DNA from: Opitutia bacterium
GTDB lineage: Bacteria; Verrucomicrobiota; Verrucomicrobiia; Opitutales; Seribacteraceae
Length of the DNA stretch: 62,815 nucleotides
Assembly (NCBI GenBank): GCA_002716045.1
Contig: PAZC01000026.1
Location: 8,406 to 71,220, forward strand
Direction: 5' to 3'
Part shown: piece after piece, positions 12,149 through 16,289 of the stretch
How positions within the stretch are numbered: position 1 is the stretch's first letter
Layout: each line of letters starts with the position of its first letter
The notes under the pieces: generated by a model
Seen by the model: only the letters and a program-made list of their open reading frames with translations
What the model was told of the DNA's origin: nothing
The model's database searches: none
Made by a program: the position numbers and the translations under genes

Positions 12149-13636
12149 ATGTCAAAAGACCTCACCGAGACACTGGCCAAGTTGTCAGACCGCAATCTCC
12201 CAAAGGAGGAAGCCGATGCCTTGCTGGCAACCCTCGAAGGCAAGGACCTTCTTCTCGAGGTAGAATTCCAGCGACACAACACGACTCTTTCGATCAGTGC
12301 CCCTGAGGAATTTCGCAGAGGACAAACTCTCAATGGCAAAGCAGGTCAGCGCGAAGTACAGGTCCTGCTGCCGGAGTCAGACGAGGTTGCGGTCCGGGCA
12401 TTGACTTACGGTACGGAGCTTTCGTTGGTGGTTCGCTATCTCGAGTTCGATGATTTTTATCGAAGGGCCACTTTCACCGGCACCCTGCAAAGCAACACGG
12501 AGGAAAGCGAAGCGGAGCCTGCGCCTGACAAACCAAAGCCAGAACCCGAACCCGAGGCGACTCTCGAACCGGAAGCGGAGCCCGAACCCGAGCCGGTTGC
12601 GGAAAAAGAAAAGCCATTGGAGGCGGAGGAAGATCCGGCGGAACCTGTACCGGAAACCATCGAGCAGGAGGACGCTTCTGACAGCATCGCTCCACCGCTG
12701 GAGGAGCCCGCGAAAACACAGACAGGCGAACTGGCGGTTTTCTCAAACCCTGATTTGCCGGAGGACGCAGGCTCCACCTTGGTCGGAAAATCCTCGGTCA
12801 GCAGCGCCGACTTGATAGCCGCAATTGCCCAAGAAACCGAGTCCAGTGCCAAAGAGGCGGCCCTCGCAGTCGATGGGTTTTGGGATTATCTCGCTGACGT
12901 CAAGGGACACTACAAGCAGGCCAGTGGTGGAATACATTACTTGGTGATCCCTCATTTCGGCACTTTTCGCTTAAGATTCAAAGAAGCTTATAATTGGAAT
13001 AGCGAAGCCTTCGAGATGGAGCCCATCTTCGAGTTTAAGCCCGGACCTAATGAAACTGGTTCTCGTGGCAGGCCAAGTTCAAGTTGGGTGGATCAATGGT
13101 CCGGCAAACCCGGGCGGCTATCCATTCGTCGAGGCATTTCAATTTACGTGGCCTACAAATCGGGTCTGCCCCTCAAGAAGGCGGACATGTTGCTCAACCA
13201 CTTGCTGGATGCAGTGAAGAACCTTTTTCGTAACAAAGTCACCATAAACTGGGCCCGCAGAGGCACCATGCGCCTCAATACAACCCGCAGAGGCAAAGAA
13301 ATTTATTCCTTTTTCCCGAGTCCGGGATTCAAGGAGAGACTGGAGATTCCACCGGAGCCAAGGCACCATATCCCGAAACCGGAGCCCGAACAGTCATGGA
13401 GCCAAGAAAAGGGCAAAGGTTCGGGGCGATACAAGTCAAGCAAGCCACCTATGCCCGACGGGCAAAAAGCAGCCATGAAAGTAAGTGGGTGCGGCTGCTT
13501 AACGCTTCCCTTCCTTGCGGCCCTACTATCGTCATGGAGGGTTCACGGATCCGAGCATTTGTTTCAACTTGGCTTCTTGCTGGGAATTACATTCGTCGTG
13601 CTCTTGTTCAAGCGGATTTTGTCCCACCGCGGATGA
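12149..13636 (+). CDS. Protein with beta-rich N-domain, Glu/Pro linker, HU/IHF-like domains and C-terminal membrane segments
   Basis: 495 residues. Residues about 20-112 are a beta-rich domain (LLLEVEFQRHNTTLSIS); 118-190 are a Glu/Pro-rich spacer with repeated EPEP; 217-278 look like an HU/IHF fold (ADLIAAIAQETESSAKEAAL ... IPHFGTFRLRF); 326-390 look like a second, more divergent copy (GISIYVAYKSGLPLKKADML ... TINWARRGTMRL). Two hydrophobic stretches end the protein (about 447-462 and 470-488). The stop is only 13 bases before the retron reverse transcriptase ATG, so the pair is almost surely co-transcribed. I infer a DNA- or msDNA-binding membrane protein and possible retron effector; the HU-like call is by eye and unproven. 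Confidence 0.7.
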   Translation: MSKDLTETLAKLSDRNLPKEEADALLATLEGKDLLLEVEFQRHNTTLSISAPEEFRRGQTLNGKAGQREVQVLLPESDEVAVRALTYGTELSLVVRYLEFDDFYRRATFTGTLQSNTEESEAEPAPDKPKPEPEPEATLEPEAEPEPEPVAEKEKPLEAEEDPAEPVPETIEQEDASDSIAPPLEEPAKTQTGELAVFSNPDLPEDAGSTLVGKSSVSSADLIAAIAQETESSAKEAALAVDGFWDYLADVKGHYKQASGGIHYLVIPHFGTFRLRFKEAYNWNSEAFEMEPIFEFKPGPNETGSRGRPSSSWVDQWSGKPGRLSIRRGISIYVAYKSGLPLKKADMLLNHLLDAVKNLFRNKVTINWARRGTMRLNTTRRGKEIYSFFPSPGFKERLEIPPEPRHHIPKPEPEQSWSQEKGKGSGRYKSSKPPMPDGQKAAMKVSGCGCLTLPFLAALLSSWRVHGSEHLFQLGFLLGITFVVLLFKRILSHRG

Positions 13637-13649
13637 CCCCAATCTCATT

Positions 13650-14513
13650 ATGATAGCAAGCCAACTGCCCCGAAACCTCGCAGATCTAGCCGCAATCCTT
13701 GGGCTTTCGGAAAGCGAACTGGTCAAGCTGGCTGAAGTGGCGGAGCACGCCTACAATAGATATCCATTGCGCACGCGCAAGAGGCGGCCCCGTTGGATAG
13801 AAGCGCCCAAGCCTTTTCTGAAAGCTGTCCAACGTCGATTGCTCGAGACTTTGCTTTATCAAGCCCACCCCCATGAGAAAGCCCATGGCTTCTTTCCGGG
13901 ACGCTCCATCCTGAGTAACGCCACCGTCCACACTGGCAAGGCGTGGGTACTCTCCTGCGACTTGAAGGATTTCTTTCCCTCCACCAAACAGCTCATGGTG
14001 GATTACGTCCTGCGTCGCTTCCATGGTTTTGAGCAAACAGCGCGAGCCGTAATACTCGGGCTCGTTTGTCGTGGCGGGGCCTTGCCTCAAGGAGCCCCCA
14101 CGAGCCCGCACTTGGCCAACTTGGCGTTTTTAGATGGCGACGAACAGTTAAGCGACTTGGCCAATGCTCATGGACTGGCCTATACGCGCTATGCGGATGA
14201 CATGACCTTTTCGGGCGATTCGCTGCCCGACGACTTGGAGGACCAAATTGCAGCAATCGTTGTGCCCATAGGATACCGCCTCGCCCAAGCGAAAACCAAG
14301 CGCATGGGACGCCATCAATGCCAAAAAGTCACCGGACTGGTCGTGAATGACGGGGTCAAGTTGCCCCGCGCCCAGCGCCGCCGCCTACGGGCAATACGCC
14401 AGGACCTCGATACCCGGGGAATGGATTTCGCGCTTGCTCGCAGCAGTTATCGTTCAGCCGCCGAACTGGCGGGGCACCTGGCCTTCGAGCGGATGGTCGC
14501 AGTGGCCCGATAA
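13650..14513 (+). CDS. Retron-type reverse transcriptase
   Basis: 287 residues from the ATG at 13650; the longer reading frame upstream runs through the previous gene and lacks a signal. All retron landmarks can be placed: GRSILSNATVH with the NAxxH motif (residues 90-94), SCDLKDFFPS with a catalytic Asp (104), QGAPTSPHLANL (147-158), the catalytic YADD followed by MTFSG (181-189), and the VTG motif in KVTGLVVNDGVKLPR (227-229). There is no maturase or endonuclease domain, which excludes a group II intron protein. Length is a little short for the family (about 300-320). No structured RNA is visible upstream, where only 13 bases separate it from the HU-like gene; a structured element follows its stop instead. 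Confidence 0.93.
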   Translation: MIASQLPRNLADLAAILGLSESELVKLAEVAEHAYNRYPLRTRKRRPRWIEAPKPFLKAVQRRLLETLLYQAHPHEKAHGFFPGRSILSNATVHTGKAWVLSCDLKDFFPSTKQLMVDYVLRRFHGFEQTARAVILGLVCRGGALPQGAPTSPHLANLAFLDGDEQLSDLANAHGLAYTRYADDMTFSGDSLPDDLEDQIAAIVVPIGYRLAQAKTKRMGRHQCQKVTGLVVNDGVKLPRAQRRRLRAIRQDLDTRGMDFALARSSYRSAAELAGHLAFERMVAVAR

Positions 14514-14522
14514 AAGTGTCGC

Positions 14523-14722
14523 GGGGCTTCCGAAACTACGTCCGAAGAAACCTGGGAAAAGGCAACCGCTGGTTGCCGGCGGGTGCTTCCGTTCCTGCGG
14601 AAGCACCCTTCCAAGGTTTCGGAGGAGACAATCGACTAACCGCGGCGGAACACCGCAGCGTATGTCCGAAACCATAGGTGGATTCGACAGTTTGACTGTT
14701 AGCTAGGTCCGATGGAAGCCCC
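14523..14722 (+). ncRNA. Candidate retron-like structured RNA (msr-msd-like) downstream of the reverse transcriptase
   Basis: The 200-base segment begins 10 bases after the reverse transcriptase stop. Its ends are a perfect 9-bp inverted repeat, GGGGCTTCC at 14523-14531 and GGAAGCCCC at 14714-14722, like the a1/a2 arms that close retron RNAs; G14532 just after the first arm is a possible branching guanosine. Inside are a branched domain (14541-14623), a hairpin at 14641-14660 with an AACA loop, and a small hairpin at 14686-14700. Known retrons normally carry this RNA upstream of the polymerase gene, so a downstream position is unusual. No open frame is needed to explain the stretch. It is followed by a T-rich run (14731-14740) that may end transcription. 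Confidence 0.72.
14541..14623 (+). other. Branched stem domain within the candidate ncRNA
   Basis: Pairing read by eye: TCCG (14541-14544) with CGGA (14620-14623), a 3-base bulge, AAACCT (14548-14553) with AGGTTT (14614-14619), a single G/A mismatch, then GGAA (14555-14558) with TTCC (14609-14612). This stem encloses two perfect hairpins: GGCAACC/GGTTGCC with a 3-base loop (14561-14577) and an 11-bp stem GGGTGCTTCCG/CGGAAGCACCC with a 6-base loop (14581-14608). Such dense perfect pairing is not expected by chance in 83 bases. Confidence 0.75.
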
Positions 14723-14822
14723 ACGACAAAAGTATTTTTTCACCAAACCGCCGAAGGTGTCAAGTGCCGGGAAATGCAATTTAGTTGTTGCCGTTCAACA
14801 AGGGTCAGGCAATTCACGAGAA

Positions 14823-16289
14823 ATGAACGTACTAACAAAACTCATTTTGCTTCCCATTCTTTTGCTGGCAGTTGCCGCTTCAATCGCCACGGCCAAGGCA
14901 CCCAGTTTCGTGCTCTTCCTGGTGGATGACCTCGGCTACATGGATGTCGGGGCCTACAACCCGAACTGCTTCTACGACACACCCAACGTGGATGCCCTCG
15001 CCAAGTCCGGCATGAAATTCACCGACGGCTACGCCGCCAACCCAGTCTGCTCCCCCACCCGATTCGGCATACAGACTGGTCGCTATCCCTCCCGCAAGGA
15101 CGCCACCAATTTCTTCAGCGGCAGACGAGGCGGTCTCTTCAACTCAGCCCCTCTCCATGGGAGGATGGATCTCGAGGAAGTGACCATCGCGGAAGCCCTC
15201 AAGAAAAAGGGCTATGCCACCTTCTTCGCAGGCAAGTGGCACCTCGGTCCGACCGAGGAATTTTGGCCCACCAAGCAAGGCTACGACGTCAACCAAGGGG
15301 GGTTCTCGAAAGGCGGGCCCTACGGCGGGAAAAAATACTTCTCCCCTTACGGCAATCCCCGGATGACGGATGGCCCGGACGGCGAGCATTTGCCCGACCG
15401 ACTCGCCAGCGAGACCTGCAAGTTCATCGAGAAAAACAAGGGGCAGCCCTTCTTCGCCATGCTCTCCTTCTACTCCGTGCACACCCCGCTCATCGGCCGT
15501 CCGGACCTAGTTGAGAAATACAAGAAGCGAGCCCAGAAAATTACCGGGCCCGAGTTCGGCGACGAGGAATTGGTATGGCCGAAGAACAAGGGGAAACGCA
15601 AGGTGCGCATCCTGCAAAAGCACGCCGTCTACGGAGCCATGGTGGAAGCCATGGATTTGGCCGTGGGCAAGGTATTGGACAAGCTCGAGGCACTCGGACT
15701 GGACGACGAGGTGGTAGTGGCCTTCACCTCCGACAACGGCGGTCTCTCCACCTCCGAAGGCTCTCCCACTTCCAACCTGCCTCTTCGCGGCGGCAAGGGC
15801 TGGCTCTATGAGGGGGGCATCAGGGAAAACTTCCTCGTCCGTTGGCCGGGCGTGACCAAGCCCGGTTCCACCTGCGCCCATCCGGTCATGAGCACCGACT
15901 TCTTTCCCACCTTCGTGAAAGCTGCAGGAGCCAAGCCCAGGGGAATTGGTCCGATCGACGGCGTGGACATCATGCACCTGCTCAAGGGAGGCGACGAACT
16001 GAAACGAGACGCCCTCTACTGGCACTATCCCCATTACAGCAACCAAGGAGGTTTCCCCGGTGGAGCCATACGTATGGGAGACTTGAAACTAGTCGAGCGC
16101 TTCGAGGACGGCAAAGTCCATCTCTACGATCTCTCCAAGGACATAGGCGAGCGCAACGACATAGCGGCCAAGCATCCGGAGAAAATAGATGCCATGCGTA
16201 AAAAACTACATGCCTGGTACAAGGAAGTGGACGCCAAGTTTCTTCAAGCCAAGGGCAACGGCCCCAAGCCCTGGCGACCGGGCAAGTAA
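14823..16289 (+). CDS. Secreted sulfatase, Cys-type (formylglycine-dependent)
   Basis: 488 residues from the ATG at 14823, which gives a clean signal peptide (LILLPILLLAVAASIATAKA). VLFLVDDLGYMD carries metal-binding Asp residues; the active-site motif CSPTR starts at Cys76, the residue converted to formylglycine; GKWHLGP and FTSDNGG give further metal and sulfate ligands. It belongs to the S1 arylsulfatase family acting outside the cytoplasm, probably on sulfated polysaccharide. No formylglycine-generating enzyme is seen in the window. A start at 14712 would overlap the RNA element and lose the signal peptide. Confidence 0.94.
   Translation: MNVLTKLILLPILLLAVAASIATAKAPSFVLFLVDDLGYMDVGAYNPNCFYDTPNVDALAKSGMKFTDGYAANPVCSPTRFGIQTGRYPSRKDATNFFSGRRGGLFNSAPLHGRMDLEEVTIAEALKKKGYATFFAGKWHLGPTEEFWPTKQGYDVNQGGFSKGGPYGGKKYFSPYGNPRMTDGPDGEHLPDRLASETCKFIEKNKGQPFFAMLSFYSVHTPLIGRPDLVEKYKKRAQKITGPEFGDEELVWPKNKGKRKVRILQKHAVYGAMVEAMDLAVGKVLDKLEALGLDDEVVVAFTSDNGGLSTSEGSPTSNLPLRGGKGWLYEGGIRENFLVRWPGVTKPGSTCAHPVMSTDFFPTFVKAAGAKPRGIGPIDGVDIMHLLKGGDELKRDALYWHYPHYSNQGGFPGGAIRMGDLKLVERFEDGKVHLYDLSKDIGERNDIAAKHPEKIDAMRKKLHAWYKEVDAKFLQAKGNGPKPWRPGK

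What the first reader, a model, noticed from the sequence alone, without database searches (positions are those of the whole stretch)
14514..14740. Retron-like RNA placed downstream of its reverse transcriptase
Directly after the retron-type reverse transcriptase stop there is a 200-base stretch that looks like a retron msr-msd RNA: a perfect 9-bp terminal inverted repeat (14523-14531 with 14714-14722), a branched domain with two perfect inner hairpins (one of 11 bp), a 7-bp hairpin with an AACA loop (14641-14660) and a T-rich end. Characterised retrons carry the RNA upstream of the polymerase gene, but here only 13 bases lie upstream, so the RNA must be downstream or absent. This order may define a distinct retron lineage.
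Basis: partly seen in the sequence, partly recalled or inferred. Interest (0 to 1): 0.9.

Follow-up and report, generated by a model that had tools for sequence, protein, structure and literature searches.

The report
Backward-encoded retron RNA downstream of RT
A bacterial retron (a reverse-transcriptase phage-defence element) carries its template RNA gene after the enzyme gene and on the opposite DNA strand, instead of before it on the same strand as in the retrons characterised so far, and this layout is kept in all ten related genomes examined.

Summary
Read on the MINUS strand (14728 to 14517) it has the textbook order. A long a1/a2 stem ends immediately before the G of a conserved CTAGC. 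Next come a 9-bp, 3-nt-loop msr hairpin and a variable two-hairpin msd, with an Eco1-like GACGTAG next to a2. The RT is retron type X (PADLOC RT_X, E 5e-129), preceded by a tandem-HU 'IHF-VHL_X' gene. All 9 other type X loci found (Verrucomicrobiota, two clades) carry the same element in the same place and orientation. Their stems covary, all fold better as minus-strand RNA, and TTGAC sits at -35/-36 in 10/10. Covariance models find it only at type X loci. The element is single-copy. So this is a known retron type with an unusual layout: the ncRNA gene is convergent, tail-to-tail, with the RT. I found no description of this layout in the papers held, but the paper defining type X was not readable, so earlier description is not excluded. 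No msDNA has been shown.

The parts
12149..13636 (+). IHF-VHL_X gene (495 aa): acidic linker, two HU-like halves, C-terminal hydrophobic (probable membrane) stretch; probable effector/msDNA-binding partner
   Evidence: PADLOC IHF-VHL_X E 8e-110; Pfam Bac_DNA_binding in relatives E 1e-9 to 3e-13; AlphaFold model of relative L015, HU matches in PDB weak by E-value
13650..14513 (+). Retron type X reverse transcriptase (287 aa), YADD, VTGLVVN
   Evidence: PADLOC RT_X E 5e-129, next family 7e-67; Pfam RVT_1; closest solved RT is retron Ec86 E 1e-30
14734..14763 (-). Minus-strand sigma70-like promoter: -35 TTGACA (14763-14758), 18-nt spacer, extended -10 TGn AAAAAT (14739-14734)
   Evidence: only promoter-like site in 14400-14900; TTGAC at the same distance from a1 in 10/10 loci
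14517..14728 (-). Predicted msr-msd ncRNA, 5' end near 14728, 3' end near 14517
   Evidence: conserved in 10/10 type X loci; covariance model hit in window E 9e-29, a training sequence
14704..14728 (-). a1 strand of terminal stem (14728-14714, extended by 14710-14704), ending immediately 5' of the priming G
   Evidence: helix 1 of A3, 23 pairs, 97% paired
14702..14706 (-). CTAGC with predicted 2'-5' priming guanosine at 14703
   Evidence: present in all 10; TAGC motif per PMC6868368
14639..14659 (-). msr hairpin, 9 bp with 3-nt loop (enclosed by stem 14699-14694/14633-14628)
   Evidence: helix 5 of A3, 100% of cells paired, 2 pairs changed on both sides
14540..14623 (-). msd template region; predicted RT-DNA would be plus-strand sequence starting GTCCGAAG at about 14540 and ending near 14623-14630 (end points inferred)
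   Evidence: covarying msd stem 14620-14609/14558-14547 (helix 7); priming junction GGAC-G-TAG as in Eco1 GAC-G-TAAGG
14581..14611 (-). msd hairpin 1 (sequence variable, pairing kept)
   Evidence: helix 8 of A3
14561..14577 (-). msd hairpin 2 (GGCAACC-AGC-GGTTGCC)
   Evidence: helix 9 of A3
14517..14536 (-). a2 strand of terminal stem; its end lies 3 bases from the RT stop codon

Best explanation
The stretch is the msr-msd RNA gene of a type X retron, encoded downstream of the RT on the opposite strand, so that the ncRNA and the IHF-RT operon are transcribed towards each other. Shown by sequence: conserved position, structure, covariation, promoter placement, and strict association with type X RT and IHF genes. 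Inferred: transcription starts at about 14728; the RT binds the msr hairpin and primes from the 2'-OH of G14703 in CTAGC; it copies the msd from about 14540 upward into an ~85-90-nt RT-DNA with two hairpins; the tandem-HU protein (membrane-anchored here) binds this branched DNA and is held inactive until phage infection disturbs the complex, as in other retron defence systems.
For: All ten type X loci (window, L011-L019) carry the element directly after the RT. Covariation: 21 of 77 pairs (Opitutia clade) and 16 of 69 (Verrucomicrobiales clade) changed on both sides, 0/500 shuffles as high, sliding abolishes it. Minus strand: TTGAC 35-36 nt before a1 in 10/10, the only promoter-like site in the region, lower energy on minus in 10/10, 85 G.U against 12 A-C cells (structure from the minus fold), invariant U.G in the msr hairpin in 10/10. 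TAGC at the stem end and a 9-bp/3-nt msr hairpin fit the retron definition. The priming junction GAC-G-TA matches Eco1. Two covariance models hit only type X loci strongly among 86 sources; in 134 relative genomes R1 hits only five, the ones with close RT homologues. No room upstream: 13 nt or overlap between IHF and RT. RT_X and IHF-VHL_X profiles.
Against: No transcript, msDNA or defence assay. The 5'-region models cross-hit the other clade only weakly (E 0.16-0.34), although at the right place and strand. The -10 box is poor in L012 and L013. No terminator was found for the ncRNA. No Rfam family matches. Effector role and mechanism are by analogy only.
Confidence: 0.88

Rival explanations
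1. Retron RNA read on the plus strand: the 3' part of the IHF-RT mRNA folds as msr-msd.
For: Plus strand also folds well (z -6.9); it would be co-transcribed with the RT; sister-type loci L138-L140 do carry a same-strand downstream element.
Against: No conserved promoter on plus; canonical a1-TAGC-msr-msd-a2 order exists only on minus; msr hairpin broken on plus by A-C mismatches; 10/10 fold better on minus.
Confidence: 0.06
2. A structured DNA/RNA element not used by the RT: bidirectional terminator, REP/MITE-like repeat or mRNA stabiliser next to the RT gene.
For: Inverted terminal repeats and intergenic position.
Against: Single copy in the genome; found only next to type X RTs; no terminator site; conserved msr hairpin, TAGC and promoter spacing.
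Confidence: 0.03
3. The retron RNA lies elsewhere (upstream of the IHF gene, within it, or in trans) and this element is regulatory.
For: In most other retron loci the structured region lies upstream.
Against: Type X loci show no strong upstream structure (L012 up+ -3.2 is the lowest); 51 nt upstream of IHF in the window and ~70 nt in L014; 13 nt or overlap between IHF and RT.
Confidence: 0.03

Closest known systems
Retron type X (PADLOC RT_X + IHF-VHL_X; types after Mestre et al. 2020, not readable here)
   Same: RT and partner gene both match the type X models, same gene order
   Different: The msr-msd is placed downstream and antisense; I could not check what has been described for type X ncRNA
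Retron-Eco1 (Ec86)
   Same: RT homologue (E 1e-30); a1 ending before TAGC; priming junction GAC-G-TA; a1/a2 stem, msr hairpins, msd
   Different: Eco1 ncRNA lies upstream of and on the same strand as the RT, msd is one long hairpin; here it is downstream, opposite strand, msd has two hairpins
Retron-Sen1 (Se72)
   Same: Unusual cassette layout (msd reported as transcribed in both directions, PMC6868368)
   Different: No report of a convergent downstream ncRNA gene in the text read
Downstream elements of L138-L140 (family f40, same phylum)
   Same: RT best matches RT_X; structured msr-msd-like RNA downstream of the RT with its own promoter
   Different: Same strand as the RT, no IHF gene seen, different sequence, RTs not sister to type X

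Membership tests
Retron | Retron-clade RT | tested here: met
   PADLOC RT_X E 5e-129; solved retron RTs are the closest chains
Retron | Adjacent structured RNA with complementary a1/a2 ends, msr 5' of msd | tested here: met
   on the minus strand
Retron | Priming G in TAGC-like motif at the inner end of a1 | tested here: met
   CTAGC in 10/10; stem ends at the A before G in A3; definition in PMC6868368
Retron | msr hairpin of 7-10 bp with 3-10 nt loop | tested here: met
   9 bp, 3-nt loop, Opitutia clade 100% paired; one mismatch in some Verrucomicrobiales
Retron | msd as a single long hairpin | tested here: not met
   msd folds into two hairpins on a common stem in the type X loci; a usual, not a strictly defining, feature
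Retron | ncRNA upstream of RT on the same strand (usual layout) | tested here: not met
   downstream and opposite strand in 10/10; usual layout, not strictly defining
Retron | msDNA with 2'-5' RNA-DNA linkage | not testable with these tools
   needs msDNA extraction
Retron type X | RT_X together with IHF-VHL_X gene | tested here: met
   (window and the relatives tested)
Retron type X | type X ncRNA as originally described | not testable with these tools
   defining paper not held
Rfam retron/msr families | match at gathering score | tested here: not met
   none

The most novel reading that the evidence does not exclude
Type X retrons form a lineage whose ncRNA gene has been inverted to face the RT operon, so that read-through RT mRNA is antisense to the ncRNA and the two transcripts regulate each other; the branched msDNA is the ligand of a tandem-HU effector with exchangeable output domains (membrane segment, VHL-like beta domain or none).
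Probability: 0.3. Interest if true: 0.75.

Novelty: new variant of a known kind. Interest (0 to 1): 0.58.

Why it matters
Retron RNAs are commonly sought upstream of the RT (PMC6868368). A lineage with the RNA gene downstream and antisense would be missed or called RNA-less. Knowing its place and strand makes type X directly testable for RT-DNA production and defence, and gives a covariance model to find more. Convergent transcription of template and polymerase also raises a regulatory question not posed by standard retrons.

Tried and rejected
Plus-strand reading (no promoter, broken msr hairpin). Mobile or dispersed repeat (single copy). Terminator (none). Rfam at gathering and permissive thresholds. 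Viral-contig scan: no type X relative, best 38% identity; plasmid scan gave two records in the 60-80% band that were not among the rows shown and were not followed. IHF-VHL_X over 388 Verrucomicrobiota genomes: own genome only. Apparent downstream structure in L030 and L050 judged to be unrelated repeats. L006, sister RT of type X: no clear element on either side (z -1.4 and -1.0). First fold-scan script timed out. Searches for papers on downstream or opposite-strand retron RNA found nothing relevant.

Full report
OBSERVATION. Thirteen bases separate the upstream gene from the RT.

WHAT THE GENES ARE. The RT (13650-14513) matches PADLOC RT_X at 5e-129, the next family being 7e-67; the preceding gene matches IHF-VHL_X at 8e-110. 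These are the two genes of PADLOC's retron type X. Nine further loci were fetched (L011-L019), all Verrucomicrobiota, all with an IHF-like gene directly before the RT. RTs checked in four of them score best with RT_X, and partner proteins checked in six with IHF-VHL_X. In a tree of 86 retron RTs the ten form one group (100/92).

THE ELEMENT IS CONSERVED. All ten have the element directly after the RT; in L018 it overlaps the RT stop, and in L011 the RT frame stays open through it. In a fold scan of a subset of loci the type X ones have their strongest structure downstream of the RT, while most other retron loci with a clear signal have it upstream (simplified block shuffles, so approximate). 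L030, L050, L139 and L140 are exceptions with a strong downstream signal; the first two look like unrelated repeats, the last two are listed among the things noticed in passing. Within the Opitutia clade (5 sequences) 92.6% of cells pair and 21 pairs change on both sides; within the Verrucomicrobiales clade (5) 95.8% and 16 pairs; no shuffle of 500 reached these, and sliding the partner by 1-3 columns abolishes most of the signal. The structures were derived from these same alignments, which inflates the slide control for cells paired but less so the both-side changes; the sequences are also related, so the shuffle counts are not probabilities.

THE STRAND. Read on minus, the order is a1, CTAGC, msr hairpin, msd, a2, the canonical order described in PMC6868368: the a1 strand ends immediately before a G that sits in TAGC, and the msr hairpin has 9 bp with a 3-nt loop. 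TTGAC begins 35-36 nt before the element start in 10/10 loci; a GATAAT-like -10 follows in the five Verrucomicrobiales loci (AATAAT in L014) and AAAAAT with TGn in the window, while L012 and L013 have a poor -10. The scanner's only promoter-like site in 14400-14900 is this one. Each of the ten sequences has lower energy on minus. G.U cells outnumber A-C cells 85 to 12 in the minus-derived structure; with structures predicted separately on each strand, minus has 43 G.U and 5 A-C and plus 12 G.U and 10 A-C in the Opitutia clade, whereas in the other clade the contrast is weaker (42/7 against 25/7; consensus energies -61.0 and -60.6). The promoter, the TAGC position and the msr hairpin therefore carry the strand argument there.

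SPECIFICITY. Covariance models from each clade hit only that clade's loci strongly among 86 sources, and weakly (E 0.16-0.34) the other clade's element at the right place and strand. In 134 related genomes model R1 hits five, the same five that hold RT homologues of 60% identity or more; these are the genomes of the training sequences, so this shows the absence of other copies rather than independent discovery. The element is single-copy in its own genome.

COMPARISON WITH ECO1. The Eco1 ncRNA (170 nt, recalled and then found at 99-100% in 48 E. coli genomes) lies upstream of its RT on the same strand. Its junction TCTGAC-G-TAAGG next to TTAGC corresponds to TTCGGAC-G-TAG next to CTAGC in the window. 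By analogy reverse transcription would start at the template C at 14540 and give RT-DNA beginning GTCCGAAG.

THE PARTNER PROTEIN. The conserved core is about 180-200 residues; in L015 and L012 Pfam's bacterial DNA-binding (HU) profile matches two stretches. An AlphaFold model of the L015 protein (pLDDT 81) has two helix-beta halves; HU chains are among the best PDB matches (TM by target 0.8), though no E-value is below 0.001. Output parts vary: hydrophobic C-terminus in the window and L019, VHL beta domain in L011 and L013, nothing in L015-L018. HU proteins prefer bent and branched DNA (general knowledge), so binding to a two-hairpin msDNA is a plausible but untested idea.

MECHANISM, SHOWN AND INFERRED. 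Shown: conserved structure, promoter-like sequence, strand bias, linkage. Inferred: transcription, priming, RT-DNA, binding by the HU-like protein, defence.

NOVELTY. The RT lineage is known. The downstream, antisense placement is not described in the papers I could search, but Mestre et al. 2020 and the 2024 retron census were not held; the finding may already be noted there. I therefore call it a new variant of a known kind, with that reservation.

Noticed in passing
L138, L139, L140 (downstream of RT): Retron RTs of one family in the same phylum (RT_X E 1e-74 to 1e-79, no IHF gene seen) carry an msr-msd-like structure downstream on the SAME strand, with promoters such as TTGACT-16-TATAAT; possibly a second, independent downstream layout.
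   Followed up: partly
L011:1637-2701: The RT reading frame has no stop before the element and runs on through it (354 aa), i.e. coding strand antisense to the ncRNA; may be real or a MAG error.
   Followed up: no
L014-L018: Type X retron sits in conserved company: T2SSE ATPase gene, a small metallopeptidase-like gene (Pfam M90/ATLF-like, below cut-off), IHF, RT, ncRNA, then an alpha/beta hydrolase gene.
   Followed up: partly
window 12149-13636 and relatives: IHF-VHL_X proteins keep a tandem HU-like core but swap the rest: zinc-ribbon-like N-terminus, membrane segment, VHL beta domain or none.
   Followed up: partly
L006:1171-2598: Sister RT of type X in the same bacterial family has N- and C-terminal extensions; no convincing RNA element on either side.
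   Followed up: partly
window 14826-16289: Sulfatase gene starts about 60 nt from the ncRNA's -35 box, so its promoter would be back to back with the ncRNA promoter.
   Followed up: no
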